A stretch of DNA of 64,000 nt from NCBI GenBank assembly GCA_004017535.1, contig SAJS01000010.1, positions 1 to 64,000 of the forward strand, read 5' to 3'. The notes below the pieces were generated by a model, which saw only the letters and a program-made list of their open reading frames with translations, was not told where the DNA came from and did no database searches. How positions within the stretch are numbered: position 1 is the stretch's first letter; the number at the start of each line of letters is the position of its first letter. The position numbers were made by a program, and so were the translations under genes. The stretch is from Mesorhizobium sp. GTDB lineage: Bacteria; Pseudomonadota; Alphaproteobacteria; Rhizobiales; Rhizobiaceae. Shown here piece after piece: positions 16,254 through 52,671 of this stretch.

Positions 16254-19200
16254 CTACTCAGCAGCCTGAATAGAGGGTATCTCATTGCCGAAGATCAACG
16301 CATCTTCGGAAGCGGCCGAATACAACTCGTCCATCTGCGCTTCTAGAGCCGAAAGGGCGGTTAGCCGAAGAACCATGTTCCGAAGCCAGCGCTGCTCCTC
16401 CAACGTCATCGGCCTCCCCTCGAGGCGAGTGACATGACGGTAGCCAAGCCATTTCCGGATCGTTTGATAGCCCCCAAGTTCATATCGCCATGCCATCATG
16501 GGAACATTGGCTAGATATACATCATTGTTGATCCAAAGCTCTCCGCTAACATCGTCGTTTGGCACGAAACGTCCCGGGGCCGCCCCAAAGTAGGAAATGG
16601 TGACGCGAAGGTCATTGGCGCTTATGGATTGACCGTCTGATCGCCGGATTGCCGCAATGCTGGCCACCTTATCACGGCCGAGTATTTCACGAAGTACGGA
16701 CGATGCGTCGGTCGAACAGTCCATCAGCGCCGCGACAAGACGACCCAATTCACCCACCTGTCGAGCTAGTGCCGGATTTTGTGGTACTGGCACCCGAGCC
16801 CAGTCGGCCGCCAAAGCGCTCGCATGCTCCATGCGGTAAGCGGGCGAGTTCATGATCGCCAAACAAATGTGGACCAACTCGTTTGCACAGAGATGGGCAT
16901 CGGGGGCTTCGAGTCCCCCCGCCTTGTCCCAAGCTTCGCGAAGCGAAGCCCAAATTTCTGGCGACATATTGGCCAAACGGCCTCCAGTAAGGGCGTCAAT
17001 CCTAACGACAGCCGGAATGGCGACCGATCCGCGGTCATGAACATGCAGATCTAGAAGCGTCCGGGAAAAGAGTGGTCTTGCTTCCGAGACTTTGCGCGGT
17101 TCAGGCACCGCGATCAGGAAGCACTCACAGTCAACATTGGCCCCGAGCGTCTCCCGGGGCTCATTTAATAGTTTGAGTCTGTCCTCATAGTAGATCCACC
17201 GCTGGTCGAACGGGAACAGAAGATAAGGCTTAACGCGACTCTCGTCGAAGCCCAGCTTCCGGAGGCTGTTCCAGACCTTCTCCGGGGCGTAACGGGCGCG
17301 CGGAATCGCCAGCCCGGGACAGGCGCTCGACGCGTTTACGAAACTTTCGGCTTTGACATATGCGGCAATGCGATCCGTTAGAGCCTTCTCACTAACGTCA
17401 ATGAGACTGCCGGTAATGCCCCTATTGGGATTTATTCCCTGCATGCGAATTGGAAAAAGCTCTTCTAGACTTGGCCACGCCTCATAACCGGCAGCATGTG
17501 CGTGCGGCGCTAACCGCCAACGGTTCTGCCTCGTGGGCGTTAGCCGACGATATGGCGCTGCGCTTTCCGGAGAGAGCAATTGCCGACGTTTTGAGGCCGC
17601 CTTCCCCCAGAAATCTCGATATTGAACAATGGTCTCTTCCGGTTTGGTGCGTTCGGCGCCTCTCTTGAGGAACGTTGCGATGGCAACGCCCGTCTGGATA
17701 CCTCTTGGGTCATTCTCGGTGGTGAAAACGCTTTGATCGGCAGTGCCTGCACCAGCGATTCCCGCGGGGATGACTTTGCCGGTTCGGTATTTGTCACCGT
17801 TCAGGTTGTCGATCCAGATTTCGTGAAAGTTACAAAGCAGGGACTCCCGCATGATTGGGTGAGAACGCCCAGTTAGCCAGGACGAATTTGTGATCAGAGA
17901 TACCAGCCCGAAGTCGCGCTCCTCAGCGATCTCCCGTTCTGCCAGTCTGTAAAACCTGACGTAGAGGTCATTGAGCAGTTGTTTGCGCACGCCCCAGTGG
18001 CGAAACAACAATGTCGTTCGATCTTGCACCAGCTCTGTGATGCCGTCGCGTCGCCTTCGTTCAATATAGGTAACCCCTTTATAGTGATCGATCAGCCCGG
18101 CCTCCTCCTCCATCTTGACTGCGGCCTGCCGGTCGTAGGGTGGATTGCCTAATATAACAACGATATCAGCGTCTTGCTTGATCGATTGCGCAGCTTCGAA
18201 TTCTTGCTGAAGCTCCGGAAAGTTGAGGTGAAGCTGACGTCGGTCGTTCCATCCGGTGAGAGCGTTGGTAAGAAAGATGCCAAGCCGCTGATCGTTTGGC
18301 GGCGGTGCTCTTAGATCACTGAGCATCACGTAGAGCTGAAGTTGTGCGATCGCGAACGGCGCGGTGAGAACCTCAAAGCCAAAAATTCGGGTTGTTAGAG
18401 CCTTGAGCAGCGAGAGGCCGACGAGTCCTTCTTCGCCTGTCGTTCGGAGTTCCTGGGCAATGCAACGTGCTGCTTCGAGAATATAGGCTCCAGTCCCACA
18501 ACACGGATCGAGGAGAACTACGTTTTCATCTGCCAAACCGAGCGGACAGCCAAGTTCCTGCTTAAGGAGTTCGTGGGCTCGCCGGACCTGGTACCGAACT
18601 ATCTCGGGGGGCGTGTACCACACTCCCATGGTCTTCTTGAGCGCCGGATCGAAAGCTTCTAGAAACGGTTCATAGAAGTAGGTCATCGCCGCGCTGGCGA
18701 CGTCTCCGTCTGACAAAGACGGAAAGGTCATCTGCTGACGGAAGACTTCGAGCTCCACCCGATTCAATGTGTCAGTTGCACGGTCAAGGTGACGTTCCAG
18801 ATCGAGATGCCTTAAGCGGCTCGGGTTTCGGAATTCGTGAAACAGGCCCGCCAAGAACGGAATCCTGAGATATCGGTTTATCCGGTCCCAACCAAAACTG
18901 GTGCCGTCCTGCTCGCGCTGCCATAGCGCCCAAGCCGCGAACAGACCGTAGAAGGCCGTCTGAATTAACGTCGATCTGAAAAACTCACGACCTTCCTCGT
19001 CATCCAGGTCGAAGCTAAGCCCCAATGCGTCTTTGTAGTCCTCAAGGAGGGTCTCGAGACCGCGGAGATCTCTTGGCAGAGCTGCCTTCGCTGCTTTGGC
19101 CTGCAGCGCCAATACACGGGCAAGGGTGGCCGGCTCTCCAATTGGCACGCTATCCAGCAGAGTAGTTTGAAGCAATTCTACCAGGTCGTTTGTTTCGCGA

Positions 19201-19712
19201 CCGGCTCGTCCGGCCGGCCACAAACAAGCTGTTCGGACCAGCTCCCGGTCGCCGGGCTTCACACGATCCGACCCAGCACGACTATGGCCCGCGCGGCATA
19301 ACACCAAGCCGATTTCGCCAACGTTGCAGACAAGAACTACGCCCGTACGGGCGAGATATCGGCCGATCTGATCGTTTCTATCTGTCGAGAAAGCGAGTTC
19401 TTGAATACTAGTGCTTGGAGTTTTTGCTTCGCCGTATGCGGCGATCAATGCTCCGTCAGCGAGGACGAAGTCGGGCCGATCTCGCCCCCTATCTGGACGA
19501 AGCTCACTGGTGCCGGTGCGAACTTCGAATGGAAGTTTCAGATGTGATAGTGCCGTCGAAAGAAGCTGTCGGATCCAAGGATAATAGCTTTCTTCTGTGA
19601 CGCCGGGTTGTGCAGCGAGCGCACGCGTTTGACGCTCATAGTCCTCAAGCGCTACGCGAAGGTCCTGCACTCTTTGTCTCCACCCAGTCCCGGGGCAGAG
19701 ATTTGACCACAA
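16254..19712 (-). CDS. single-polypeptide restriction-modification enzyme (PD-(D/E)xK nuclease plus N6-adenine methyltransferase, type IIG/ISP-like)
   Basis: The 1152-residue protein combines an N-terminal PD-(D/E)xK-type nuclease (RPDF with Asp81, then GEAK with Glu95 and Lys97) with a gamma-type N6-adenine methyltransferase. The methyltransferase has the entry motif GVWYTPPEIVRYQV at 363-376, motif I LLDPCCGTGAY at about 400-410 and motif IV GNPPY at 522-526. The C-terminal third resembles the target-recognition region of type ISP enzymes (FDQRWIYYEDR, ANVPMMAWRYELGGYQTIRKWLGYR). Unlike type ISP enzymes it has no helicase, so type IIG is the better class. It follows the metallopeptidase gene by 65 bases on the same strand. 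Base composition is visibly less GC-rich than the conjugation genes. Confidence 0.85.
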   Translation of the reverse strand: MWSNLCPGTGWRQRVQDLRVALEDYERQTRALAAQPGVTEESYYPWIRQLLSTALSHLKLPFEVRTGTSELRPDRGRDRPDFVLADGALIAAYGEAKTPSTSIQELAFSTDRNDQIGRYLARTGVVLVCNVGEIGLVLCRAGHSRAGSDRVKPGDRELVRTACLWPAGRAGRETNDLVELLQTTLLDSVPIGEPATLARVLALQAKAAKAALPRDLRGLETLLEDYKDALGLSFDLDDEEGREFFRSTLIQTAFYGLFAAWALWQREQDGTSFGWDRINRYLRIPFLAGLFHEFRNPSRLRHLDLERHLDRATDTLNRVELEVFRQQMTFPSLSDGDVASAAMTYFYEPFLEAFDPALKKTMGVWYTPPEIVRYQVRRAHELLKQELGCPLGLADENVVLLDPCCGTGAYILEAARCIAQELRTTGEEGLVGLSLLKALTTRIFGFEVLTAPFAIAQLQLYVMLSDLRAPPPNDQRLGIFLTNALTGWNDRRQLHLNFPELQQEFEAAQSIKQDADIVVILGNPPYDRQAAVKMEEEAGLIDHYKGVTYIERRRRDGITELVQDRTTLLFRHWGVRKQLLNDLYVRFYRLAEREIAEERDFGLVSLITNSSWLTGRSHPIMRESLLCNFHEIWIDNLNGDKYRTGKVIPAGIAGAGTADQSVFTTENDPRGIQTGVAIATFLKRGAERTKPEETIVQYRDFWGKAASKRRQLLSPESAAPYRRLTPTRQNRWRLAPHAHAAGYEAWPSLEELFPIRMQGINPNRGITGSLIDVSEKALTDRIAAYVKAESFVNASSACPGLAIPRARYAPEKVWNSLRKLGFDESRVKPYLLFPFDQRWIYYEDRLKLLNEPRETLGANVDCECFLIAVPEPRKVSEARPLFSRTLLDLHVHDRGSVAIPAVVRIDALTGGRLANMSPEIWASLREAWDKAGGLEAPDAHLCANELVHICLAIMNSPAYRMEHASALAADWARVPVPQNPALARQVGELGRLVAALMDCSTDASSVLREILGRDKVASIAAIRRSDGQSISANDLRVTISYFGAAPGRFVPNDDVSGELWINNDVYLANVPMMAWRYELGGYQTIRKWLGYRHVTRLEGRPMTLEEQRWLRNMVLRLTALSALEAQMDELYSAASEDALIFGNEIPSIQAAE

Positions 19713-19777
19713 TATTGGTAAACAAAGATTGATCCATCCGCAGCCTGACCAGCTTGTGGCCCGCTATTGGTCGCCAA

Positions 19778-20701
19778 TCACCGATATGGAAGCTGGCCAG
19801 CGGCAACGAATCTATCGAATGTATCTGGAGTTTCCTCTTCAGCTTGCTGTCGCGGCCCTTCGCCCTCAAAATGCAAAAGGGTGATTTCCTGGTCGTATCG
19901 ATCGGATCGAAAGCACATTTCATAGACCGGATCAGGGAACCAGACATTGGCAGGCTGCATCGTCCCGGTAATCGCAACATCCGAATAATCACCCCGAGCT
20001 GCAAAGGCCTTCTGTGGCAATGTGAAGACCGCGGTCTTCGTCCGAATGAAACACCCCGCCTGGAATGCCGGGCCACTCGACTTTGCCCAATGAGCGAAAC
20101 CTTCGTTGGAGACGACCATGATCGCCTTGGTCTCTGTATATTCGAGCCAACGCAAAATTGTCGCGGTCAACGACACGCCGTAGCGTTTTGCGAGGCGCCC
20201 TAGGATTTCGAAATCGGGGCGGTTCTTTGCAGGAAGCTGCCTGCGAAAGTCGTGGAGCGGCATCAGGAGCGCCGCAGCAAATTCGTCGGCCTCCTTCTCA
20301 ATGCCTGAGCCTTCGCGGCGAACGACGCTGTTCTCATCACAGAAGATGCCGTGATCGTATGCGTCATCCTCTTCAATCAGCTTTCTATGCAATACGTAGT
20401 GTCCAAGCTCGTGCCCGATCGTGAAAGCACGCCGACCGGACGACCGGTCGGTATTGTACAGTATCGCCCATTGGCGAGGCCTGACTTCACTATAAACAAG
20501 CGCACCAACGCAACCGGTCAGGTTCCGTGCTGAGACTTCATGAATGGGGCCATTGGGCTCGATCTGGGCTGAATACTCAAGCGCCAGTTGCCGAACGTCA
20601 ACGGGTCCGCGATCGAACCGGTCCGGACCCAGAACAAGATCGAGCATCTGGGTGATGCGAGTTGCCTCTCTCAACGGCCGCGGCCGGTTCGGCTCTGTCA
20701 T
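19778..20701 (-). CDS. ImmA/IrrE-family metallopeptidase, CapP-like
   Basis: The 307-residue protein has the zinc-peptidase motif TIGHELGHYVLH (His97, Glu98, His101) and the downstream EKEADEFAAALLMP helix with the third metal ligand. ImmA/IrrE peptidases cleave partner HTH repressors when DNA damage occurs; CapP does this for CapH in CBASS loci. Here its ATG overlaps the stop of an XRE/CapH-like repressor gene by four bases, and the pair faces a CBASS operon. The roughly 150-residue tail after the peptidase core may carry the sensor function. Role as CapP is an inference from gene pairing and neighbours. Confidence 0.82.
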   Translation of the reverse strand: MTEPNRPRPLREATRITQMLDLVLGPDRFDRGPVDVRQLALEYSAQIEPNGPIHEVSARNLTGCVGALVYSEVRPRQWAILYNTDRSSGRRAFTIGHELGHYVLHRKLIEEDDAYDHGIFCDENSVVRREGSGIEKEADEFAAALLMPLHDFRRQLPAKNRPDFEILGRLAKRYGVSLTATILRWLEYTETKAIMVVSNEGFAHWAKSSGPAFQAGCFIRTKTAVFTLPQKAFAARGDYSDVAITGTMQPANVWFPDPVYEMCFRSDRYDQEITLLHFEGEGPRQQAEEETPDTFDRFVAAGQLPYR

Positions 20702-21233: not shown

Positions 21234-22493
21234 TTGACTACGCAGTTTGCCTTTAACGGTCTCAATCCGTTTGACGATCCTCTCGACCGTATCCTCGCCG
21301 AAATCGCGCTAAGCATCCAGCTCCCGCCTTCGCTGCACGACAAGGCAGCGGGCCGCTACGAAGCGGTCAGGACCTTTCTTGAGCATACGGTGGCTTTCAG
21401 GGATCAGATCGAGCACTTTTATCCGCAAGGATCTATGGCGATCAACGCCACTATTTCTAATCGTGGCACCGACGACGAGTACGATCTCGATGTCGTGTCG
21501 CAGCTCGGCGGCCGTTTCTGCTCGATGACGCCCCTCGATATCCTGAAAGAGCTCGAGAAAGCGCTCGCCGACTATCCTGTCCAGCGTATCCGCAGGCAGA
21601 CCCGCTGTGTGACGCTCTACTATGCCGACAAGATGCATCTCGACGTGACGCCGGCATTGCGGAATTTCGGAACGCGCGAGCGTGAGAGCTTCATCACCCA
21701 TGCGAAAGGTCCGCAGCCGTCGGCCGATGACCGTTTTGTGGACATGAATGCCTATGGCTTCGGCGAGTGGTATCACGCCAGGACGCCGGTCGAAGCCCGG
21801 ATGGCAGGGGAGTTTCATCGTCGGTGGCGTGATCTCGATGGTTTGCGGTTTCGCGCCGAGGCCGAAGTGGCCGATGTTCCCGATCAAGCCGACTTTGTCG
21901 TCAAGAACACCGCCACACTTGCTCTTCAGCTGATCAAACGGTTCCGCAACATCATTTATGCCGGATATGCTGGGCGCATCCCACCCTCGGTGATGCTTTC
22001 CTTCTATGCCGGAAGGGCGGCCCAGCCGAACACGGCACTCTCAGCCATGGTGATCCGCATCTCAAAATGGATCATCGCAGACATTGAGAACGCGTCCCTC
22101 TACGGAAAGAAACTCCACGTCGCCAACCCTGTCTGCGACGATGACGTGTTCACGGACCGCTGGCCGGAGTCGGTCGATCAGCAAAACGAGTTCGCCCGTC
22201 ATCTTCGCGCGCTCGTCGACGGCCTGGAAAGGATGCGTCAGGGCGAGATGTTCCCAGACGACATGATGGATTGGCTGAGGGGCAATTTCGGAGACCGCGT
22301 CGTGACACGCGCGGCAGAAAATATCGCTGCCGAGGTCGGAGGCGCAATTCAGAAGTCGCAGCAGCTCTATGGCCGCCGGGGCGGGCTGATCCTTCCGAAA
22401 CCTTCGATCATCACCGGCACAGCCGCCACATCCGTCGCCGCCCCGGCCGTCGCGGCAGCAAAGCCACATACTTTCTTCGGAAAGAAAATCTGA
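21234..22493 (+). CDS. CBASS cyclic-oligonucleotide synthase (CD-NTase)
   Basis: The 419-residue nucleotidyltransferase shows PQGSMAINATI (Gly-Ser at 66-67), DEYDLDVV with the Asp84-x-Asp86 metal ligands, and the third Asp137 in MHLDVTP, so the active site is complete. CD-NTases make cyclic di- or trinucleotides on phage infection. I take the TTG at 21234, which has GGAGAAG upstream; no in-frame ATG lies nearby. A 23-codon frame from ATG 21185 overlaps this start and may couple translation. The next gene starts one base after its stop. The effector (patatin) suggests a cyclic dinucleotide product, as in CapV systems. Confidence 0.88.
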   Translation: MTTQFAFNGLNPFDDPLDRILAEIALSIQLPPSLHDKAAGRYEAVRTFLEHTVAFRDQIEHFYPQGSMAINATISNRGTDDEYDLDVVSQLGGRFCSMTPLDILKELEKALADYPVQRIRRQTRCVTLYYADKMHLDVTPALRNFGTRERESFITHAKGPQPSADDRFVDMNAYGFGEWYHARTPVEARMAGEFHRRWRDLDGLRFRAEAEVADVPDQADFVVKNTATLALQLIKRFRNIIYAGYAGRIPPSVMLSFYAGRAAQPNTALSAMVIRISKWIIADIENASLYGKKLHVANPVCDDDVFTDRWPESVDQQNEFARHLRALVDGLERMRQGEMFPDDMMDWLRGNFGDRVVTRAAENIAAEVGGAIQKSQQLYGRRGGLILPKPSIITGTAATSVAAPAVAAAKPHTFFGKKI

Positions 22494-22494
22494 C

Positions 22495-22944
22495 ATGGCG
22501 CAGCTCCTTCCTCTTGAGGAGCAGATCGCCGCGATGAAGGCGACCTGGCCCGAACTCGCTCCACGCAACATTGATCGCCGACTCCGGTCGGCACGATGGG
22601 TGGGGCGGGTTCGCGCGCAACACTGCTGGTACGCGATCGAGATTCGCTATCAAATCGGTTCGATGCCTCAGGTCAGGGTGCTCGCTCCGATTCTTGTTCG
22701 CCTACCAGGCAACGAGGAAGGAGAACTCCCCCATGTCTACCCACCGTCAAACGACCCGACGCTTTGCCTTTTCGATCCTCGGACAGGTGAATGGGACGCA
22801 TCCATGGCATTGGCGCACACCATCGTTCTTTGGACGCTCGATTGGCTAACTTGTTACGAGCTTTGGCTAATGACCGGCAAATGGACCGGTGGCGGCCGCC
22901 ACGCCGGTGATCCGGTGCCGATCTCAACGGAGAATGCACAATGA
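22495..22944 (+). CDS. CBASS E2-like conjugating protein (type II-short)
   Basis: The 149-residue protein matches the stand-alone E2-like proteins of short type II CBASS. It has the HVYPPS turn at 80-85, the putative catalytic Cys91 in NDPTLCLFDP, and the tail WTLDWLTCYELWLMTGKWTGGGRH. In this class E2 alone, without an E1-JAB fusion, is thought to attach the CD-NTase C-terminus to a target and prime it. The CD-NTase here ends in HTFFGKKI, a tail that could serve as the conjugated end. The gene begins one base after the CD-NTase stop and overlaps the patatin start by four bases. Confidence 0.85.
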   Translation: MAQLLPLEEQIAAMKATWPELAPRNIDRRLRSARWVGRVRAQHCWYAIEIRYQIGSMPQVRVLAPILVRLPGNEEGELPHVYPPSNDPTLCLFDPRTGEWDASMALAHTIVLWTLDWLTCYELWLMTGKWTGGGRHAGDPVPISTENAQ

Positions 22945-23987
22945 ACTACATGCCCCCTCGTCGGTCAGACGGGACAATTCAGCATGCGCGCAAAAAGCTC
23001 CCCTGGCCTAAGGACCGACTGTTCCGAATCCTGTCGATTGACGGTGGCGGAATTCGGGGGATCTTCCCAGCCGCCTACCTTGCAGAGATCGAGAAGCGGT
23101 TCCTTGGTGGATCGTCCATCGCAAATCATTTCGACATGATTGCCGGCACTTCCACGGGAGGCATCATTGCTCTTGCGCTCGGCCGCGGAATGACGGGCAG
23201 CCAAGCATTGGACATTTATTTCGAGCGAGGCGAGCGCATATTTCCTCCCCGTTCCGGCGTCAGCGGGTGGGCCCGCGCGGTCCGTTGGGTGTTCAAGCCC
23301 AAGCATGACCAGAATGTTCTGAAAGACGAATTGCTTCGCATCTTCGGCGACAAGGTGCTCGATTCTTCAACCAAGCGCTTGGTGATACCCAGCTTCGAAG
23401 GTCGCCACGGAGAGCCGTTCCTATATAAGACACCGCATCACCCGGACTATCAGAAGGATCGGCACAAGAAGTTCGCCCATGTCGCGCTGCACACGACCGC
23501 TGCGCCGTCCTACTATCCCGGAGTGGATGACGATGGGTACATCATGATCGATGGCGGAATCTGGGCGAACAATCCTGTCATGAATGCCGTCGTAGATGCG
23601 CTCGCCTGTTTTGACGTCCCGCGCGAGAATATCCGCGTCTTGAGCCTGGGCACCGGTGAAGCGACCTTCACCGTCGACGAGAAAGCGCGATCTGGAGGAG
23701 CCATGGAGTGGGCCTTCATGCGAAGCTTCAATGCTGCTGCTCGGGCACAGTCCAAGAACGCGCTCGGTCAGGCCTATCTGCTGCTGGGCAAGAATAACGT
23801 GGTCAGAATCGACGTCCCAGAAAGCGACAAGCCAATCGCCCTTGATGATGTTGCCCGTTCGGTGCGCGAGTTGCCTCTCGTTGCGCGCAGTCTCGTGGAA
23901 GGCTCAGGGCACCATGTCCAGAACCTCTTCCTGCAGGATGGCGTCGACATTTTTGAGACCTGCCCCGTCGTCCCGGCACAGGCTTGA
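22941..23987 (+). CDS. patatin-like phospholipase, CBASS effector CapV-like
   Basis: The 348-residue protein has all patatin elements: oxyanion loop GGGIRG at 35-40, nucleophile Ser71 in GTSTG, and the catalytic Asp204 in IDGGIWANNP. CapV effectors are activated by the cyclic dinucleotide and degrade the inner membrane, killing the infected cell. The gene overlaps the E2-like gene by four bases, closing the three-gene CBASS operon in the order synthase, E2, effector. Full length and apparently intact. Confidence 0.88.
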   Translation: MNYMPPRRSDGTIQHARKKLPWPKDRLFRILSIDGGGIRGIFPAAYLAEIEKRFLGGSSIANHFDMIAGTSTGGIIALALGRGMTGSQALDIYFERGERIFPPRSGVSGWARAVRWVFKPKHDQNVLKDELLRIFGDKVLDSSTKRLVIPSFEGRHGEPFLYKTPHHPDYQKDRHKKFAHVALHTTAAPSYYPGVDDDGYIMIDGGIWANNPVMNAVVDALACFDVPRENIRVLSLGTGEATFTVDEKARSGGAMEWAFMRSFNAAARAQSKNALGQAYLLLGKNNVVRIDVPESDKPIALDDVARSVRELPLVARSLVEGSGHHVQNLFLQDGVDIFETCPVVPAQA

Positions 23988-25042: not shown

Positions 25043-25735
25043 CTATTCCTCGATATCGACTCCGGCGTCTTCATGCCGCCAGCCAACTGGGATGATGTCA
25101 CCAGCGAGCAGCTTTTCCTTCGACAGCAGCCCGGCGTCCTCGAGGGCCTCGAAATCCGGCAGCTGGCGCAGCGTGTCGAGCCCGAACTGCGACAGGAAGT
25201 TTTTGGTCGTCACATAGGTGTAGGGCGCGCCCGGCTGCGGGCTGCGCGGCCCCGAAGCGATGAGGTCCTGCGCGCGCAGCACGCCGATCAGATCGCGCGA
25301 TATCTCCTTGCCGAAGAAGGAAGACAGCTCGCCACGGGTGATCGGCTGGAAATAGGCGATACACATCAAGACAAGCGTCTCCGACTGCGACAGGTCTTTT
25401 GCACCCTGTCCCGGAGCCGTGCCGAAGGCGGCGTGGATGGCGTCGCCAAAGACCTTTTTGGTGCGGTGCTGCCAGCCGCCAGCGACTGACACCAGTTCGT
25501 AGGGACGGCCGGCGAGCTCGGCGCGGATGTCGTCGATGACGAGGTCGAGATTGCAGTTTCTTCCCACCACCCGCGCCAGCACCCCGCGCGGCACCGGTTC
25601 GCTGGCTGCAAAGATCACCGCTTCGACGCGGCCCATCCACTCGCGCCAGCGCAGTTCCGGCGGCAGATGCTCGAGCTCGGTGTCCAGCAGCGCTGGCTGA
25701 TCGTCAGGCTTGCGGCGGACGGAGGCTTGGCTCAT
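25043..25735 (-). CDS. scpB: ScpB-family protein (SMC-ScpAB subunit), accessory copy
   Basis: The 230-residue protein has the tandem winged-helix layout of ScpB: ELRWREWMGRVEAVIFAASEPVPRGVLARVVG opens the first and SQSETLVLMCIAYFQPITRGELSSFFGKEISRDLIGVLRAQDLIASG covers the second, followed by TYVTTKNFLSQFGLDTLRQLPDFE. ScpB normally pairs with ScpA and SMC in chromosome organisation. No scpA or smc gene is nearby; instead it follows a DUF1403 gene, an arrangement common in rhizobial plasmids and islands. It may act in maintenance of the mobile element. Confidence 0.82.
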   Translation of the reverse strand: MSQASVRRKPDDQPALLDTELEHLPPELRWREWMGRVEAVIFAASEPVPRGVLARVVGRNCNLDLVIDDIRAELAGRPYELVSVAGGWQHRTKKVFGDAIHAAFGTAPGQGAKDLSQSETLVLMCIAYFQPITRGELSSFFGKEISRDLIGVLRAQDLIASGPRSPQPGAPYTYVTTKNFLSQFGLDTLRQLPDFEALEDAGLLSKEKLLAGDIIPVGWRHEDAGVDIEE

Positions 25736-26690
25736 CGCTAAAGCCCAAACAGCCGAGAGCTGGTGCGGCCCGACAGCTCGCGCACGGCCTCGAGCTGCTG
25801 CAGCCGGTCGAACAGGCGCCGCGCCGCAAGCGCGACAGGTTTTTCGTCGTCAGTGATCCGGCGACGGCGTCTTCATTGAGCAGCAAAAAAATCACGTCGC
25901 CGGCGCCCTTGGCGCGCAGTTTTGGCGCCACCGCCAGGAGTTTTTCGGCGCGGCGCGACAGCTCGGCGGCCAGCCGGCAGGCCTCGGCCGCTGCTTGAAC
26001 CAGCGCAACGCAGACCGCGCGCTCAAAATCTCTTTCGCCGGGTCGAATGCGTCGGTCGCCGGCCTTGCTGCGAAAAGCCGGGCCAAAAGCCTGCGCCATC
26101 AGCAGCGGCAGCGGCCGCGGCCAGCGCCGGCTTTGCGCCAGCACCAGGTCGGCGAGCCACCAGCCAAAAAGCTCGGCATCGGGGCGCATGGCGACGACGC
26201 GGGCGGCGATCGCCGCGGCGGCGAATGGCGCCGGCCGCTGCGACCCGGCCACGTCCTCGATCTCAATGCACAGGTCGGCGAGCGCCGCGTCGTCCCAGGC
26301 GAGCCCGAGCATCTCGGTCCCTTTTGCCAGCCGATCGGCGCTGACCGCCGGCGGCTGCAGCGCCAACTGGCGCCAGGCGCCAAAAATGGCGCCGGCGGGA
26401 CCGGGATCGGCGCCGGCCGGGCAAAGCTGCCAGACATCGCGCAAACCTGCCTCGTCCTCGGCGCGGCCGGCGAGCCGCATGCTGGCGGCGGCGGATTTGA
26501 GCGCCAGCCGCTGGCGCCATGCGCCGGCCCAGGCGGGCTGCGCGCGGGCGAGGCTGTCGAGCGATGCCAGGGCCGCGCCGGCCTGGAAGGCAGCGTCGGC
26601 GTCGCTGGGCGTGCCGGCGCTTGCGTGCGCCCAGCGCGGAACGGTCGGCGGCGCGGACGGATTGGCGGTCGCGGGATCGAGGCGAATCAT
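25704..26690 (-). CDS. DUF1403 family protein with frameshifted C-terminus
   Basis: The frame opens at ATG 26690 (MIRLDPATANPSAPPTVPRW) and encodes a largely helical, alanine-rich protein of the DUF1403 family, function unknown. Near 25828 the frame departs from a plausible tail. Reading on the neighbouring frame gives AARRLFDRLQQLEAVRELSG and a stop at 25738, two bases before the scpB start. The present frame instead runs 32 bases into scpB with a cysteine- and serine-rich tail. From 26690 to 25738 the length is one base short of a whole number of codons, so one base is missing (probably an A in the CAAG run, minus-strand TTG). Either recent decay or sequence error. Confidence 0.75.
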   Translation of the reverse strand: MIRLDPATANPSAPPTVPRWAHASAGTPSDADAAFQAGAALASLDSLARAQPAWAGAWRQRLALKSAAASMRLAGRAEDEAGLRDVWQLCPAGADPGPAGAIFGAWRQLALQPPAVSADRLAKGTEMLGLAWDDAALADLCIEIEDVAGSQRPAPFAAAAIAARVVAMRPDAELFGWWLADLVLAQSRRWPRPLPLLMAQAFGPAFRSKAGDRRIRPGERDFERAVCVALVQAAAEACRLAAELSRRAEKLLAVAPKLRAKGAGDVIFLLLNEDAVAGSLTTKNLSRLRRGACSTGCSSSRPCASCRAAPALGCLGFSDEPSLRPPQA

Positions 26691-26849
26691 GATTTTGAGG
26701 GTAGAGTGCCCGTGCGCTTTGCGCCACGATTTTCGCGCCAAAACGCACAGCCTGTCGGGCGATTAAAACGAATGATAATGTTGCCATATCAATCGTTTGT
26801 GAAGCTAACCTATCATCGCGTTCCAGCTTCTCACGACGCGCATAACCTG

Positions 26850-31793: not shown

Positions 31794-33052
31794 TCAGCCT
31801 CCATAAGGTTCGAGCACGAGATCGCGCGTGACGATGACCCGCACGGGAAAACCAGGCCGAATGGTGAGCGTCGGCGCTATGTTGAGCTGCCGCTGGACGA
31901 TCTGCTGGCCGGTCTGGCTGATGCTGTCGGAGGCGCCTTGGCGCAGCGCGCGCACGATATCGCTTTCCTCGCGCGAGGAGCCTGCCTGAGCGCCGATACT
32001 CAAAACCGTGGAGAGCGCTGCCGCCTTGAACAGCTCGCCCCAATGGTAGTTCACGCCATCCTCCAGACCGGCATAGCCTTCGGCGTCGGCACCCGGCTCG
32101 CGTTCCAGAACGATCGAGCGCCCGTCCGGAAAGATCATCCTGGTCCAGACCAGCAAGACGCGTCGCTGGCCGAAGCCGACGCCGTTATCGTACTGGCCTA
32201 TGAGCCGCGCCCCCTGCGGAACAAGGAGGATCCGTCCGGTCGGGCTGTCATAGACGTTCTCTGTCACTTGCGCGGTGATCTGCCCTGGCAGGTCGGAGCG
32301 GATGCCCGTAATGAGAGCGGCTGCGATCACGGCACCGGCCTGAAGGACGTTTTTCGACGCCGGCAATTCCACGCGATCGGGCGAGACGGTGCGCCTGTCG
32401 GACGGCTGATCGAGGAAGGCGCGCTGCCGATCCTGCGCCAATGGCGTCGCGGGCTGCGGCGCGAGGCCAAGGCTGGCGAGATCGGGCTGAGGCGTTGGGT
32501 CCGCACTGTTTTCAGCGGCAACAGGGCCGCTGGCAGGCCGGGTTTGGGTGGATGCAAAAAGCCGCGCGGTCCTGGCTGCCTCAGCTCCTGCTGCCTTCGT
32601 TGCTCCTCCGGGTCGGGCCCGACGGCTTGCGGTGAAGGTCCAGGGCCGACATTTTGCGCGTTGAGGATCGGCCGGCCGAGGTCGCCAGGAAGCGGCGGAC
32701 CGAGTTTGGGAACGCCCGCGTAGTCCTTTGGAAGGGTGGCGAGCCCGTCCGGGGTCTGGCGATTGTCCGTCGAATAGAGTTCCTGGCCGGCGCTCTGCTG
32801 TCGGTTCTGAAGCGCGTAGATCAGCGCCCCGCCGACAGCGAGGCTGGCGCCAAGGCCCAGTCCTGCCAGCACCTTACGTGACAGGCGCGTCACGCGCGGC
32901 GGCTCGGCGCGCAGCCGCATGGCCGCGGCCGGCTCGTCCGTCAAAGGCCGGCCGTCATCCTGGCCTGGCGAATCTGGCCATTCGTTCCCATCGGCGGGGC
33001 GTTTCGAGCGGGCATCGTTCTGATCACTGAAGGGATCAAATTGGTCGGTCAC
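31794..33052 (-). pseudogene. trbI: trbI, broken by a one-base deletion
   Basis: TrbI (VirB10-type inner-to-outer-membrane scaffold) should be one gene here, starting at GTG 33052 (VTDQFDPFSDQND), overlapping the trbG stop, with one TM segment (KVLAGLGLGASLAVGGALIYAL). After PEEQRRQQEL the frame is lost near 32579-32583. The neighbouring frame then supplies ARTARLFASTQTRP and continues through ENVYDSPTGRILLVPQGARL to the stop at 31794, all normal TrbI sequence. The span is one base short of whole codons; the family's usual CTGGAG(GCA) appears here as CTGAG(GCA). As written only an N-terminal half or a C-terminal fragment could be made, and transfer would fail without TrbI from elsewhere. Confidence 0.85.
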
Positions 33053-41790: not shown

Positions 41791-41901
41791 TGATATGTTA
41801 TGATATATCAAGCCAACCGGTTGATATGGTTTTATCGCGGTTTTTCCTCGCCTGCCTTGCGTTCGATATGTTTTAGCATATAATGGATGGGAGGTGATAT
41901 G
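41791..41901. promoter_or_regulatory. candidate hipB operator and promoter region
   Basis: The roughly 370-base gap between trbB and hipB holds several GATATG hexamers (41823, 41865, 41896) and the dyad TGATAT...ATATCA at 41791-41810. These sit in AT-rich sequence just before the antitoxin gene and are the most likely HipB operators, also positioned to affect trbB on the other strand. A strong GGGAGGTGAT ribosome site leads to a 20-codon frame from ATG 41899 that overlaps the hipB start; this leader could couple or attenuate hipB translation. Confidence 0.45.
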
Positions 41902-41914
41902 CAGAGACAGATCG

Positions 41915-42493
41915 ATGATCTATTCCACCGAAGGCATCCTGCAGACCTTGCGAAGCGCCCGTGAGCAGAGCGGGCTGAGCCAGCGCGACCTCAGCGCGCG
42001 CATCGGCGTTCCGCAAAGCCACATCTCGAAAATCGAAAGCGGGGCAACCGATCTCAGGCTATCGAGCCTGATCGAACTGGCGCGCGCGCTCGATCACGAA
42101 CTGGTTCTGGTGCCGCGCAAGGCGCTCGCCGCGGTCGAGGCCATCGTCAGCAACGCGACGCTGGGTGGCGAGAATCGCCGGCGCTCCGCGGCATTCAATC
42201 GCGCCGAGGCGGCACTTGCAAAGTTGCGCCGCGACAACGGCGACGCTTTCGACTTCACGCGACTTGACCAGACGTTGCGCGAACTTGCGAACTTCAGGCT
42301 GAGCAATGCCGATCTCGATACGCTCAGCGCCGTCACCGACAGGCTGATGAAGCTCCCGGCTGGCCCTGGCGCGCTTCCCGCCATCGAACGGGCATCGAAG
42401 ACGCTCAGGGCACTGCGCAACCGAATTGCCCATGCAACGCCCGAAGCGCCGCGACCTGCCTACGCGCTCGACGACGAGGACGACGATGCCTGA
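41915..42493 (+). CDS. hipB: HipB-like XRE antitoxin
   Basis: The 192-residue protein opens with an XRE HTH (IYSTEGILQTLRSAREQSGLSQRDLSARIGVPQSHISKIESG), followed by an extended helical tail that is longer than classical HipB (about 90 residues). It should bind and neutralise HipA and autoregulate the pair. Start ATG 41915 agrees with the HTH; GTG 41894 in the same frame lies in the ribosome binding site of the leader. It overlaps hipA by eight bases. Confidence 0.85.
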   Translation: MIYSTEGILQTLRSAREQSGLSQRDLSARIGVPQSHISKIESGATDLRLSSLIELARALDHELVLVPRKALAAVEAIVSNATLGGENRRRSAAFNRAEAALAKLRRDNGDAFDFTRLDQTLRELANFRLSNADLDTLSAVTDRLMKLPAGPGALPAIERASKTLRALRNRIAHATPEAPRPAYALDDEDDDA

Positions 42494-43718
42494 GGTTTCG
42501 GTCCTCGATGTCCGCCTTTATGGCGAGAAGATCGCTACGCTGTCGCTCATCCCGGGCGAGCGCACGCTGTTCGCCTTCGACAAGCCCTATATCGACAATC
42601 CCGAACGGCCGACGCTCAGCCTGTCGTTTGAGGATCAGTACGGGCAGCTCCTGACTGACTTCAGGCCGGTCAGCGTCAGGGTGCCGCCCTTCTTCGCCAA
42701 TCTGCTGCCGGAAGGGCCGCTCCGGACCTACCTTGCCGAACGGGCGGGGGTGAGCGACCGGCGCGAGTTCTTTCTGCTGTGGGTTCTGGGTCGCGATTTG
42801 CCCGGCGCGCTGACGATTGCCCCGGCGGACGGAGAGGCATGGCCCGACCTGAACGACGAGGACAACGAGGAAGCGCGCCGGAAGCGCCGGACCAACACCC
42901 TGCGATTTTCCCTCGCGGGCGTGCAGCTGAAATTCTCTGCGGTGAAGAATCCCGGAAAGGGTGGCGGGCTCACGATTCCCGCGGATGGGGTCGGCGGATC
43001 ATGGATCGTCAAGCTTCCTTCCCAGCTCTATGACGGCGTGCCCGAGAATGAATTCTCGATGATGAGCCTTGCAGCCAGGCTCGGCATGGACGTGCCTGAG
43101 CTCCAGTTGCTCGACATCGACGCGATCGACGGCCTCCCCGAGGGGATGCGGACCTTGAAGGGACAGGCGCTGGCTGTGAGGCGTTTCGACCGCGGCGACG
43201 ACGGCCCGGTGCACATCGAGGATTTCGCACAGGTGTTCGGCGTCTGGCCGGAGGACAAATACAAGCGCGGCAGCGCCCGCGCTATCGCGACCGTGCTCGG
43301 CGTCGAGGCCGGCGACGAGGGCGTGCGCGAGTTCATCCGCAGGCTCGTCTTCAACACGCTGATCGGCAATGCCGACATGCACCTCAAGAACTGGTCGGTG
43401 ATCTATCGCGACCGGCGCACCGCCACGCTTGCACCGGCCTATGATTTCGTGTCCACGATCGCCTATATCGACGATGAGTTCGCCGCGATTAAATATGCCC
43501 GCACCAAGCGCATGCGCGACTTTTCGCTGGACGAGCTTCGCTATCTGGCCGCGAAGGCGCATCTGCCTGAGAAGCCGGTCGTCGATACGGCGCGCGAAAC
43601 CGTGACGCGCTTCCGCGACGAATGGCCCGAGGCGAAAAAGACGCTTCCGATCGCGTCAGCCGTCGCCAGGGCAATCGACGCCCACCTCAAAAACCTCGCG
43701 CTTGTCTTGGTGGCTTAA
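42486..43718 (+). CDS. hipA: HipA-like serine/threonine kinase toxin
   Basis: The 410-residue kinase has the HipA N-terminal domain (LPPEG-like block NLLPEGPLRTYLAERAG), the autophosphorylation loop (FSLAGVQLKFS, about 141-151), the catalytic GNADMHLKN at 294-302 and the metal Asp320 in APAYDFV. HipA kinases phosphorylate glutamyl-tRNA synthetase and cause growth arrest. It overlaps hipB and sits, in reverse direction, between trbB and the CopG/traG group, so it may stabilise the element. Confidence 0.9.
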   Translation: MPEVSVLDVRLYGEKIATLSLIPGERTLFAFDKPYIDNPERPTLSLSFEDQYGQLLTDFRPVSVRVPPFFANLLPEGPLRTYLAERAGVSDRREFFLLWVLGRDLPGALTIAPADGEAWPDLNDEDNEEARRKRRTNTLRFSLAGVQLKFSAVKNPGKGGGLTIPADGVGGSWIVKLPSQLYDGVPENEFSMMSLAARLGMDVPELQLLDIDAIDGLPEGMRTLKGQALAVRRFDRGDDGPVHIEDFAQVFGVWPEDKYKRGSARAIATVLGVEAGDEGVREFIRRLVFNTLIGNADMHLKNWSVIYRDRRTATLAPAYDFVSTIAYIDDEFAAIKYARTKRMRDFSLDELRYLAAKAHLPEKPVVDTARETVTRFRDEWPEAKKTLPIASAVARAIDAHLKNLALVLVA

Positions 43719-49958: not shown

Positions 49959-50476
49959 AGCCCCACCCTCCTGCGCAGCAAGGCTGCGCGATGCTGCTCG
50001 AGCGTATAGCTGCGCGGCGCCTGCCCGGCGGCTATGCGGTTGTGGATGTTGCGCCAATGATCGGGCGATACCGACTCGGGCTGTATTCCGAGGCGCTCGA
50101 TCCCGTCGACCGCCTCCAGAACGCGCTCGACCCTCGGCCAGCTCTCGAGCTTCAGCAGTAGCTCGCCACCTGGTCGCACAAAGGGAAGCGTCTGGTATGC
50201 TTCGCCGGGCGACATCGCCCGCACGATTGCGATGCGCGAGGCGACCGTTCCGAAGTCGTTTGCGGCCCAGCGCACGAAGGCGAATACCGCGCCGGGCCGG
50301 TAGGACAGGATGCGCCGGCGGCGATCGACGATCTGCTCGTGAGCGTGCGTGCCGAAGCGTATCCAGTTCTCCTGTCTCTTCTCCACCCAAATCAGTTCGA
50401 CATGAACGAGATGGGCAGAGAGCTGGGGCGCCGCTGGGAACGCGGCGCGCAGGCTGGTGGCAGCGATAGCCGTCAT
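49955..50476 (-). CDS. DUF2840 family protein
   Basis: This 173-residue protein (LVHVELIWVEKRQENWIRFG, RRILSYRPGAVFAFVRWAANDFGT, GGELLLKLESWPRVERVLEAVDGIERLGI) belongs to DUF2840, always close to traF in these elements; function is unknown. AGGAGC precedes ATG 50476. In related elements a ParA/RepA-type gene pair often precedes it; here only 118 bases separate it from the RdfS-like gene. Confidence 0.87.
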   Translation of the reverse strand: MTAIAATSLRAAFPAAPQLSAHLVHVELIWVEKRQENWIRFGTHAHEQIVDRRRRILSYRPGAVFAFVRWAANDFGTVASRIAIVRAMSPGEAYQTLPFVRPGGELLLKLESWPRVERVLEAVDGIERLGIQPESVSPDHWRNIHNRIAAGQAPRSYTLEQHRAALLRRRVGL

Positions 50477-50594
50477 GAAGGTGCTCCTGGTCCTGCAAGG
50501 CGTCGCGCGTATCTCGCGCTGGAATGGAGGAATGGCGAGGCCGCGCTGGACATCCGGCATGCGTCTGCGCGGCCACGGCGTCATCGACGCGCAG

Positions 50595-50876
50595 TCACCG
50601 TGAGTATCGCCCGACTTGCCCCCCAGGCGCGGGCGCGTGTCGCTTGGCCGGCAGAACCGAGCCGCGAGGATCCGATGTCGAGGTGACAGCGCCGCGCTCG
50701 GCCCAGGCTTGGAGATCATCGACCGCATAGACGACACGGCCGCCGAGCTTTTTGTAAGCAGGACCTGTCCCGTAGGTGCGGTGCTTTTCGAGGGTACGGG
50801 CGGACAGGCTGAGGAAATCAGCAGCTTCCTTGGTGCGCAGAAAGCGCGGCGGCAAAACGGTAATATCGGGTCGCAT
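50595..50876 (-). CDS. rdfS: RdfS-like excisionase (MerR/AlpA-type HTH)
   Basis: The 93-residue protein has the excisionase-type winged HTH at residues 10-60 (RFLRTKEAADFLSLSARTLEKHRTYGTGPAYKKLGGRVVYAVDDLQAW) and a basic tail. RdfS of ICEMlSymR7A is such a protein; it drives excision and is switched on by FseA. Here it lies 141 bases downstream of the fseA frame, matching that logic. ATG 50876 gives the family N-terminus. Identity as RdfS rests on fold and neighbourhood. Confidence 0.78.
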   Translation of the reverse strand: MRPDITVLPPRFLRTKEAADFLSLSARTLEKHRTYGTGPAYKKLGGRVVYAVDDLQAWAERGAVTSTSDPRGSVLPAKRHAPAPGGQVGRYSR

Positions 50877-51017
50877 TGGATCGCAGCTCCGTGGGTTTGG
50901 GGGGCCGCTGACGTCCAGCGGCGAGCGGTGACCACAGTGGCGGAGCATGGGCTTCGGAGGGGATGGGGAAGTTGCGGAGTGTCAAAAATCCCACCCCATT
51001 TGCCTGAGCCGGAAAGG

Positions 51018-51783
51018 CTACGCGCGGCGTCGATGGCGCAGTATCTGGAGATAGCCGCCGGCGATAAGCGCCGTGGCGCCTTCGACCAGGCCGATCACCG
51101 CATCGCGAAGCGCGGAAGTCTTCCAGGGATCGGCGGCGACCCGGCTGAGCCCATAGAGAGCGATGGCGATGTCGCGATAGCTGGCGCCTGTGGAACGGCC
51201 GTCAGCGGCCTGCATCATCAGGCGAAAGCGACGCCGCTGCTGCGATGTCATTCGCGTGTCCGGTGGTACCGGGCGGCCCTGCCAGGAACGCCAGAAGCGG
51301 GTAAGCGCCTCAATCCGGCCCAACGTCTGCGCGTCCAATGGGATCAACGCGGCCACGTGGCCGCGCGTGTCACTGCCAGGGAGGAGAAGAAGCTGCGTCA
51401 CCGCAGCGGCTTTGTGGATTGCGTGGCGTCCTTCCGGGCTGTTGTGCTCCTCGCCCAGGCCTGGCAACGGCGCGAGCGAGGCCGACGACAGGAACTCCGG
51501 CATCCGGACCAGTGGAACGACCGCGGGATCGACGTCAGGACACCACAGGACCTCTTGCGCCAATGCGGACAGGTCAGGCCTGGCCGGGAAATCGCAGCCC
51601 CCATTTCTGCTGCGCCTCGGGCGTCATCGGCGCCTTTTGGGCGCTTGTCGCCAGAAGCGCGCCATAGTGCCGTTGATAGGGTTTGTGACGCCGCAGGCAC
51701 TCCCAGGCGAGCCCTTCAATTGGCAAAGCATCGAAATAATCGTAGCTGTCATGGTCTCGCCAATGGGACGTATCCGGCCTCAT
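51018..51783 (-). CDS. fseA: FseA-like excision activator made by +1 frameshift (DUF6499-DUF2285)
   Basis: The zero frame from ATG 51783 encodes a DUF6499 domain (MRPDTSHWRDHDSYDYFDAL; LPIEGLAWECLRRHKPYQRHY) and ends at 51574, four codons after CTG CGA TTT CCC. Slipping from TTT to TTC joins it to the DUF2285 frame (ARPDLSALAQEVLWCPDVD) down to 51018, giving about 254 residues (65 plus 189). In ICEMlSymR7A FseA is produced this way by +1 slippage of tRNA-Phe from UUU to UUC in the msi172/msi171 pair and activates rdfS. GAGGAG lies upstream of the ATG. The DUF2285 frame alone could also start at TTG 51563. Confidence 0.82.
51574..51783 (-). CDS. zero-frame product of fseA (DUF6499 alone)
   Basis: Without slippage translation yields this 69-residue protein, which stops at 51574 after KWGLRFPGQA. 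It corresponds to Msi172 of ICEMlSymR7A. Because slippage is usually inefficient, this is expected to be the main product, with FseA as the rare extended form. Confidence 0.75.
   Translation of the reverse strand: MRPDTSHWRDHDSYDYFDALPIEGLAWECLRRHKPYQRHYGALLATSAQKAPMTPEAQQKWGLRFPGQA
51586..51591 (-). promoter_or_regulatory. +1 programmed frameshift site TTT-CCC
   Basis: Read on the minus strand the six bases are TTTCCC within CTG CGA TTT CCC GGC. The zero-frame TTT (51591-51589) can re-pair as TTC (51590-51588) after a +1 slip, with CCG next. The surrounding peptide is WGLRFP in zero frame and FPARPDL after the slip. The site matches the published UUU-to-UUC slip in ICEMlSymR7A. No stop codon follows at once, so any stimulator would be mRNA structure or the slow CCC codon. 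Confidence 0.75.
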
Positions 51784-51915: not shown

Positions 51916-52176
51916 CTAGCTGCCGCCTCGGCGCAGGAGATGGCGGTAGCCGGAGCGTGCCATCCAGCGCGCTCGCGCCAGATGACTGTCATGAATGCGC
52001 CGGGCGCGCTGCGGCTCTTTCGCCAAATCGATGCCGAACAGGATTTCGACCACCTCGCGCCAGTCCGCGCCGTCGTCGGCCGCATCCAACAGCCGGGCGT
52101 AGAGCTTGATGTGATCGCGATCGTATTCGGTAAGTTGGTCGGCGGCCGGCGCGGCCTCGTCAAACGGCTCGATCAT
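51916..52176 (-). CDS. short DUF2285 protein, QseM-like antiactivator
   Basis: The 86-residue protein (ADQLTEYDRDHIKLYARLLDAADDGADWREVVEILFGIDLAKEPQRARRIHDSHLARARWMARSGYRHLL) is a stand-alone DUF2285 protein of the size and pattern of QseM. In ICEMlSymR7A QseM binds TraR and FseA and holds transfer off. It lies about 130 bases upstream of fseA on the same strand. Its partner QseC and the TraR/TraI sensor are not in this window. Confidence 0.68.
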   Translation of the reverse strand: MIEPFDEAAPAADQLTEYDRDHIKLYARLLDAADDGADWREVVEILFGIDLAKEPQRARRIHDSHLARARWMARSGYRHLLRRGGS

Positions 52177-52347: not shown

Positions 52348-52671
52348 TTAGTCGCGCCGCACACTCGGCCGTGACCAGATGAGCGAGAAGCCTTCTCCTT
52401 CTTCGTCGTCGAAGAGGTTGGCGTAGATCGGGGCGTTGAAGCTAGGGTCGTCGAGCTTGAGGCCCAGATAGTCGCGGCCCTCGTTGGAGCGCTTCGACCA
52501 GGCGGCACCGATCTCGGCGCGGCCGACCACGACCCGATGGCTGGGGGCGTTCTCGCCGGTGGCGCGCTGGTCGGGGACGATGCGCACGTTCTTGGCCTGG
52601 ACGCTGAGGGTGACGATTTCGCCGGTGAACTCGTTGGAGCCGGTCTTCTTGAAAGTGCCGATGGTCGCCAT
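52348..52671 (-). CDS. DUF736 family protein (second copy)
   Basis: The 107-residue protein (MATIGTFKKTGSNEFTGEIVTLSVQAKNVRIVPD; RVVVGRAEIGAAWSKRSNEGRDYLGLKLDDPSFNAPIYANLF) is closer to the DUF736 consensus than the copy at 49008. It marks the right side of the excision-control group. Function unknown. Confidence 0.87.
   Translation of the reverse strand: MATIGTFKKTGSNEFTGEIVTLSVQAKNVRIVPDQRATGENAPSHRVVVGRAEIGAAWSKRSNEGRDYLGLKLDDPSFNAPIYANLFDDEEGEGFSLIWSRPSVRRD

What the first reader, a model, noticed from the sequence alone, without database searches (positions are those of the whole stretch)
51018..51783. FseA-like excision activator with a conserved +1 frameshift site
DUF6499 and DUF2285 lie in frames offset by +1, and the only join that keeps both domains passes through CTG CGA TTT CCC, the same TTT-to-TTC slip reported for msi172/msi171 of ICEMlSymR7A. 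The span 51783-51018 has one extra base, whereas the damaged genes in this window lack one. The RdfS-like gene follows directly. This suggests ribosomal control of excision here too.
Basis: partly seen in the sequence, partly recalled or inferred. Interest (0 to 1): 0.85.

Follow-up and report, generated by a model that had tools for sequence, protein, structure and literature searches.

The report
FseA activator made by +1 frameshift
A bacterial mobile element appears to make its transfer-activating protein only when ribosomes slip forward by one base at a fixed spot, a trick already known in relatives, and the slip site proves nearly invariant among those compared.

Summary
On the minus strand, DUF6499 (51783-51574) and DUF2285 (to 51018) lie one base apart in frame and overlap at TGG GGG CTG CGA TTT CCC. 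It is not an assembly error or a decayed gene: a 97% identical copy in another genome shares the offset, and both halves are under purifying selection. Of 336 distinct homologues with both domains, 295 are +1; 289 of those have TTT followed by C or T exactly four codons after the conserved Trp. Joining at TTT restores the residue spacing of single-frame homologues. Neighbours match QseM (7uqt) and RdfS (8dgl). So this is a new member of the published FseA family, whose conserved +1 frameshift is in print. Added here: strong codon selection before the slip (GGG, TTR, CGA), no marked structure just downstream, a drifting zero-frame tail, and the same site in a genome I identify as Azorhizobium caulinodans ORS571, where a 2022 paper calls frameshifting absent. 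Excision is not shown: no tyrosine or serine recombinase and no LuxI hit lies on this 228-kb contig.

The parts
51574..51783 (-). DUF6499 half of fseA (zero frame; Msi172-like, 69 aa if the ribosome does not slip)
   Evidence: PF20109 E 7.9e-21; sequence
51589..51603 (-). Frameshift site: TGG GGG CTG CGA TTT followed by C 51588; proposed slip UUU to UUC
   Evidence: TTT-C/T at this position in 289 of 295 +1 homologues
51574..51576 (-). Zero-frame stop TGA, five codons after the slip codon
   Evidence: among 108 cluster representatives stop positions fit synonymous recoding
51018..51587 (-). +1-frame half of fseA: middle region and DUF2285 DNA-binding domain (Msi171-like)
   Evidence: PF10074 E 1.5e-36
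50595..50876 (-). RdfS-like excisionase/regulator, assumed start ATG 50876
   Evidence: HTH_17 E 5e-10 for the longer ORF 50595-50948; PDB 8dgl RdfS E 2.2e-9
50877..51017 (-). Probable rdfS promoter region with conserved blocks (CTTCCCCATCCC; CCGCTG-N5-CAGCGG); FseA box itself not assigned
   Evidence: alignment of the window and its 14 nearest relatives
51916..52176 (-). Lone acidic DUF2285, QseM-like antiactivator candidate
   Evidence: PF10074 E 2.6e-9; PDB 7uqt QseM E 3.2e-18; net charge -2 against +11 for the FseA DUF2285
52348..52671 (-). DUF736 gene upstream of the module
   Evidence: PF05284 E 4.2e-34

Best explanation
51783-51018 is an intact fseA-type gene. Most ribosomes read DUF6499 and stop at 51576-51574. 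A minority slip +1 at TTT 51591-51589: the P-site tRNA-Phe (anticodon GAA, recalled) re-pairs from UUU to UUC, gaining a G-C wobble pair, and translation goes on with CCG into the DUF2285 frame, giving a 254-aa fused activator. Upstream features likely assist: the G-run UGGGGG six bases 5' of TTT, and the CGA codon just before it (poorly decoded, recalled). The fused protein probably activates the rdfS promoter just downstream, and the adjacent acidic QseM-like protein probably holds it off. SHOWN here: frames, slip sequence, its conservation, selection on both halves, synteny. INFERRED: the slip itself, its efficiency, the role of CGA and the G-run, activation of rdfS, excision.
For: Domains in frames offset by +1. 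295 of 336 distinct homologues with both domains are +1, 38 in-frame, 3 +2; 289 of the 295 have TTT-C/T at Trp+4, two more within one codon; none of the 291 joined frames holds a stop. Trp-to-Pro spacing of 8 in 244 of 257 joined proteins with the motif (34 of 291 lacked it) and in 23 of 23 in-frame proteins with the motif (12 of 35 lacked it). Against six relatives at 78-81% identity dN/dS is 0.17-0.21 before and 0.11-0.15 after the slip. Codon bias at the site: GGG 192 of 283 Gly (background 13%), TTR 162 of 257 Leu (12%), CGA 164 of 177 Arg (10%); similar in 109 cluster representatives. RdfS-like gene downstream in 209 of 288 and lone DUF2285 upstream in 211 of 293 +1 loci with enough flank. 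Matches to 7uqt and 8dgl. Published family: ~61% of 4709 homologues with the +1 site (PMC10359603, passages).
Against: No peptide, ribosome-profiling or reporter data. Four of 295 lack a usable site: L043 and L359 have TGT-C, L264 CTT-C, L067 TTT-C but a second interruption. Three homologues have a +2 offset. The two nearest relatives give weak dN/dS for the short first half (L118 0.86, L108 0.51), at very low divergence. Single-frame homologues exist: the tree of 329 rows needs 10 changes between +1 and in-frame, and L172 reads WGLRF in one frame with TTC. Of the homologues outside the class 14 of 14 are in-frame, so the site is not universal. The FseA box could not be assigned with the published 15-16 base spacing. 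No recombinase or LuxI hit on the contig.
Confidence: 0.92

Rival explanations
1. The two halves are separate proteins (overlapping genes, reinitiation at a start codon in the +1 frame) that act together without being fused.
For: Seven of 11 fetched named plasmids carry two separate CDS; in the others DUF6499 is not listed (54, 55) or nothing is annotated (48, 49). The G-run could act as an internal ribosome-binding site. PMC9601964 (passages) states this for A. caulinodans.
Against: 57 of 291 have no ATG/GTG/TTG within 50 codons of the slip in the +1 frame, and start positions are scattered. The nearly invariant TTT-C/T and the restored residue spacing are unexplained. A conserved +1-frame Pro codon lies four codons after the slip codon, upstream of most possible starts. 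In PMC9601964 neither half alone restored transfer.
Confidence: 0.04
2. A frameshift mutation or an assembly error: a pseudogene.
For: trbI in the window may be interrupted; three +2 homologues suggest that decay occurs.
Against: The same offset in 295 of 336 homologues, including relatives at 97% and 90% identity in other genomes, and dN/dS of 0.11-0.21 at dS 0.55-1.0.
Confidence: 0.02
3. Transcriptional slippage (RNA polymerase) rather than ribosomal frameshifting joins the frames.
For: A short T-run is present at the join.
Against: The run is only TTT in 269 of 291 (C next) and at least TTTT in 22; polymerase slippage usually needs a longer run, about nine or more A or T (recalled). CGA and GGG codon selection points to translation.
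Confidence: 0.02
4. The regulator is real and frameshifted, but in this element it serves conjugation control of a plasmid-like or stranded element, not excision.
For: No PF00589 or PF00239 hit on C1 and no LuxI. The same module sits on plasmids, 18 of 43 of them typed conjugative.
Against: The window begins at base 1 of the contig, so a recombinase may lie on another contig; the rdfS-like gene is kept; the window lacks the RepA gene that follows the RdfS-like gene in six fetched plasmids.
Confidence: 0.35

Closest known systems
FseA (Msi172-Msi171) of ICEMlSymR7A, Mesorhizobium japonicum R7A
   Same: DUF6499 then DUF2285, +1 offset, UGGGGG before the site, rdfS as target, lone DUF2285 antiactivator QseM (PMC10359603, passages). 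Sequence not aligned here
   Different: Here the RdfS-like gene follows fseA after 141 bases; in R7A msi172-msi171 follows traI2 (PMC5882170, passages). No LuxI hit on the contig. DUF2840 is kept, which ICESyms lack (PMC8627217, passages)
rihF1b/rihF1a of ICEAc, Azorhizobium caulinodans ORS571
   Same: 54% identity of the joined product to the window's; TTT CGC site, +1 offset, lone DUF2285 upstream
   Different: Published as two proteins without frameshift (PMC9601964, passages); zero-frame stop 60 codons after the slip; no RdfS-like hit within 700 bases downstream
Single-frame DUF6499-DUF2285 proteins, the group with RovC of Yersinia
   Same: Same two domains; the in-frame homologues fetched here share the Trp-to-Pro spacing. 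RovC itself was not compared
   Different: One frame; CGA at Trp+3 in none of 31 scored in-frame genes (L248 and L261, which do have CGA-TTT, and five genes without the motif were left out)
+1 frameshift of influenza PA-X (UCC_UUU_CGU) and of prfB
   Same: PA-X uses UUU followed by C (title and abstract start in a listing); prfB is also a +1 slip (recalled)
   Different: No stop codon in the A site as in prfB (recalled); unrelated genes

Membership tests
FseA family (frameshifted excision activator) | DUF6499 followed by DUF2285 | tested here: met
FseA family (frameshifted excision activator) | AWEFLRRN-like motif in DUF6499 | tested here: met
   LAWECLRRH in the translation; motif from PMC10359603
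FseA family (frameshifted excision activator) | +1 offset with conserved slip site | tested here: met
FseA family (frameshifted excision activator) | Fused polypeptide is made | not testable with these tools
   needs peptide or reporter data
FseA family (frameshifted excision activator) | rdfS-like target gene nearby | tested here: met
   RdfS 8dgl, E 2.2e-9
FseA family (frameshifted excision activator) | FseA box: inverted hexamers 15-16 bases apart upstream of rdfS | tested here: inconclusive
   Weak positional enrichment in 206 promoters and conserved G-rich and CTTCCCC blocks, but no clean match with that spacing in the window
FseA family (frameshifted excision activator) | Control by TraR/LuxI quorum sensing in the same element (a trait of the R7A element, not of the whole family) | tested here: not met
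   No PF00765 hit on C1; hits on C6, C16, C11; tra box and TraR not tested
QseM antiactivator (52176-51916) | Lone DUF2285, acidic, no DUF6499 | tested here: met
QseM antiactivator (52176-51916) | Binds and blocks FseA | not testable with these tools
   needs two-hybrid or reporter data
Integrative and conjugative element | Integrase on the element | tested here: inconclusive
   No PF00589 or PF00239 hit on the 228-kb contig, but the contig may cut the element
Integrative and conjugative element | Attachment sites | not tested
   no search made
Integrative and conjugative element | Relaxase, coupling protein, Trb system | tested here: met
   the RlxS model matches below its cut-off (578 of 850 bits)

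The most novel reading that the evidence does not exclude
The FseA switch is set by a structure-free slip cassette, UGG-GG(G)-YUR-CGA-UUU-Y, in which weakly decoded codons and a G-run upstream, not a stop codon or a downstream RNA structure, fix the slip rate, while the unshifted tail is free to drift. It is more uniform than annotation suggests, includes A. caulinodans rihF1 where it was declared absent, and could make transfer respond to Phe- or Arg(ICG)-tRNA charging.
Probability: 0.55. Interest if true: 0.6.

Novelty: new member of a known kind. Interest (0 to 1): 0.42.

Why it matters
It supports by comparison that a one-base slip is kept in the regulator that switches on transfer of many alphaproteobacterial mobile elements, and gives a testable codon-level cassette (GGG, TTR, CGA before TTT-C). 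It predicts a frameshift in the Azorhizobium caulinodans ICEAc gene, against a published statement. It also helps explain why annotation splits or misses these genes.

Tried and rejected
Dual coding: in one paralogue clade (own copy on C16) the zero frame often stays open past the DUF2285 stop (14 of 291 genes in all). Over 103 of 153 pairs in that clade the zero frame across the DUF2285 part shows dN/dS 1.72, against 0.23 in the +1 frame, so I see no selection for a second protein. Selected zero-frame stop: positions in 108 representatives fit synonymous recoding (KS p 0.21; 0.36 with older sites). The same test on all 290 related genes gave p 0.024, which I discount because they are not independent. 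Downstream RNA stimulator: 45-base windows starting at the slip are less structured than average (residual +1.14 kcal/mol; +30 gives -0.73); windows starting at -45 and -15 are more structured (-2.43, -1.75), which I leave unexplained. FseA box: no clean assignment. Viral contigs: no relative found. NCBIfam gave no model for the two fseA halves, the RdfS-like or the lone DUF2285 protein. PDB sequence search with the DUF2285 half found nothing. Tree: 10 changes between +1 and in-frame in 329 rows; six in-frame rows are single tips (L261 with ambiguous bases, L248 with a second interruption, L172, L053, L169, L091), so I draw no history of gain and loss.

Method slip: a relaxed rule mis-sited the slip in a few genes such as L003, seen; the counts given come from the corrected rule. 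The tree and the charge table used the older set; the contexts printed for the 14 nearest relatives look correct.

Full report
What is there. The minus strand from 51783 holds an ORF of 69 codons ending at TGA 51576-51574 that is DUF6499 (PF20109, E 7.9e-21), and in the +1 frame a longer stretch to TAG 51020-51018 that carries DUF2285 (PF10074, E 1.5e-36). The two frames overlap at TGG GGG CTG CGA TTT CCC GGC CAG GCC TGA. A +1 slip at TTT gives WGLRF-PARPDLSALA and a 254-residue product.

Not an error, not decay. L118 in another genome is 97% identical and has the same overlap; L108 is 90% identical. Against six relatives at 78-81% identity dN/dS is 0.17-0.21 for the part before the slip and 0.11-0.15 after it. 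The two nearest relatives give 0.86 and 0.51 for the short first half, at dS of 0.02 and 0.12, too little change to judge.

Census. Loci came from PF20109 searches (family: 45 of 151 genomes; class: 25 of 385; phylum: 43 of 398; genus: 89 of 99; the family of G607: 67 of 198; only part of the candidates was scored in some genomes), a scan of named genomes (80 loci kept of 528 relatives) and named plasmids (43 records; 11 fetched). Not every match was fetched. Of 377 DUF6499 hits in 377 loci, 34 duplicates and 7 without a DUF2285 were dropped; of the 336 left, 295 are +1, 38 in-frame and 3 +2. With the corrected rule 289 of 295 have TTT followed by C or T at Trp+4, one at +5 (L054) and one at +3 (L196); four have no usable site: TGT-C in L043 and L359, CTT-C in L264, and TTT-C with a second interruption in L067. 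Sampling leaned on DUF6499 and on near kin, so 295 of 336 is not a population frequency; the literature gives about 61% of 4709 (PMC10359603, passages). By kinship the unnamed set holds +1 genes only inside the class (28 beside 17 in-frame at class level), while 14 of 14 from elsewhere in the phylum are in-frame; PMC10359603 reports the site in gamma- and betaproteobacteria too. Of 77 distinct named loci, 73 are +1 with TTT-C/T; 55 of those bear a genus name, 33 genera.

Single-frame homologues. They occur in 13 maximal clades on a midpoint-rooted FastTree tree, with 10 changes of state in all. Two single tips are doubtful: L261 has one base fewer but its record holds ambiguous bases, and L248 carries TTT-C with a further interruption. 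L172 is a clean single-frame WGLRF protein with TTC. So the frame offset has been gained or lost several times.

Why joining at TTT is right. In-frame homologues put a Pro eight residues after the Trp (23 of 23 with the motif); joined +1 proteins do so in 244 of 257 with the motif. None of the 291 joined frames holds a stop. Start codons in the +1 frame are scattered, and 57 of 291 have none within 50 codons, which speaks against two separate proteins.

Codon-level signature. Background codon use in the same genes is TTT 25% of Phe, GGG 13% of Gly, TTR 12% of Leu, CGA 10% of Arg. At the site TTT is all but fixed, GGG is 192 of 283, TTR 162 of 257 and CGA 164 of 177; 109 cluster representatives give 75 of 104, 57 of 92 and 55 of 59. 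The p-values in that call ignore shared ancestry. In the in-frame group CGA occurs at none of 31 scored sites and GGG at 6 of 31 (L248, L261 and five genes without the motif left out). A run of four to six G ends five to seven bases before TTT in 283 of 291. The base after TTT is C in 269 and T in 22. The zero-frame A-site codon is CGC or CCC in 220 of 291 and never a stop, so the prfB mode (recalled) does not apply. Windows starting at the slip show no excess structure. I cannot say whether the CGA and TTR preferences are in print: the PNAS 2015 paper is not held, I saw PMC10359603 only in passages and one section, and my searches showed nothing on them.

The unshifted product. Its tail runs 2 to 404 codons past the slip, and its stop lies where synonymous recoding would put it (108 representatives). 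So the slip is kept, not a particular short protein tail. The DUF6499 part itself is always encoded; by PMC10359603 it is the QseM-binding part, so a decoy role is possible but untested.

Neighbours. The lone DUF2285 at 52176-51916 matches QseM (7uqt, 3.2e-18) and is acidic (-2, against +11 for the FseA domain); the lone protein is the more acidic in 209 of 209 loci measured. The gene at 50876-50595 matches RdfS (8dgl, 2.2e-9). RdfS-like genes lie downstream in 209 of 288 +1 loci and lone DUF2285 upstream in 211 of 293, against 21 of 37 and 3 of 36 for in-frame loci. Of 11 fetched plasmids, six show DUF2285, DUF6499-DUF2285, HTH, RepA in that order (in 54 and 55 DUF6499 is not listed); three lack the HTH and RepA there and two have no annotation (48, 49). 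The window has trb, TraG and RlxS-like genes. DUF2840 is kept, and the short stretch between rdfS and it leaves no room for RepA.

Excision and quorum sensing. Contig C1 (228,121 bases) carries no hit for PF00589, PF00239 or LuxI PF00765. The same genome's C6 contig carries fseA, LuxI and recombinase hits, and a relaxase hit below cut-off. So 'excision' is borrowed from the R7A system (PMC10359603, PMC11963761 and PMC5882170, passages) and is not shown here.

Azorhizobium. PMC9601964 (passages) says rihF1b and rihF1a have their own start and end codons and that frameshifting is therefore absent. Genome G988 has one contig of 5,369,772 bases, the length reported for the ORS571 chromosome (PMC2443382, passage). 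Its gene reads TGG GGA CTT CGA TTT CGC with a +1 offset and a lone DUF2285 upstream. The paper's finding that neither half alone restores transfer fits a fused product. This is a prediction from sequence, not a demonstration.

Host. Not identified. Its GTDB-type family also holds G064, whose contig length equals that of Mesorhizobium sp. L-8-3, but under another genus code.

Verdict. The finding is right and the mechanism is the published one. The value lies in the tight comparative case, the codon cassette and the Azorhizobium prediction.

Noticed in passing
L358 5300-6900 (G988:C1, about 4.43 Mb): The genome identified as A. caulinodans ORS571 has the +1 TTT-C site in rihF1, although PMC9601964 states frameshifting is absent there.
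   Followed up: yes
window 31794-33049: The TrbI domain (PF03743) sits in a 215-aa ORF and the overlapping 351-aa ORF upstream has no family match; trbI may be interrupted.
   Followed up: partly
window 21234-23987: SMODS-type nucleotide cyclase followed by a patatin-like phospholipase: a CBASS-like pair.
   Followed up: no
window 16254-20701: Type ISP restriction enzyme with an IrrE-like peptidase gene beside it.
   Followed up: no
window 41894-43718: HTH plus HipA genes on the opposite strand, between trb and traG.
   Followed up: no
window 25043-26741: DUF1403 and ScpB-like genes next to each other.
   Followed up: no
window 50410-50595: No room for RepA between rdfS and DUF2840, whereas six fetched plasmids have RepA right after the RdfS-like gene.
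   Followed up: partly
L003, L082, L225, L229, L234, L235, L237-L239: A paralogue clade whose unshifted frame stays open past the DUF2285 stop; no sign of protein-level selection there.
   Followed up: yes
L043, L359, L264: Natural variants of the slip codon (TGT-C twice, CTT-C once) that would make useful test cases.
   Followed up: no
L172: A clean single-frame homologue reading WGLRF with TTC, a natural contrast to the TTT-C site.
   Followed up: no
window 50877-51017: Strongly conserved noncoding blocks before rdfS, including CCGCTG-N5-CAGCGG, of unknown role.
   Followed up: partly
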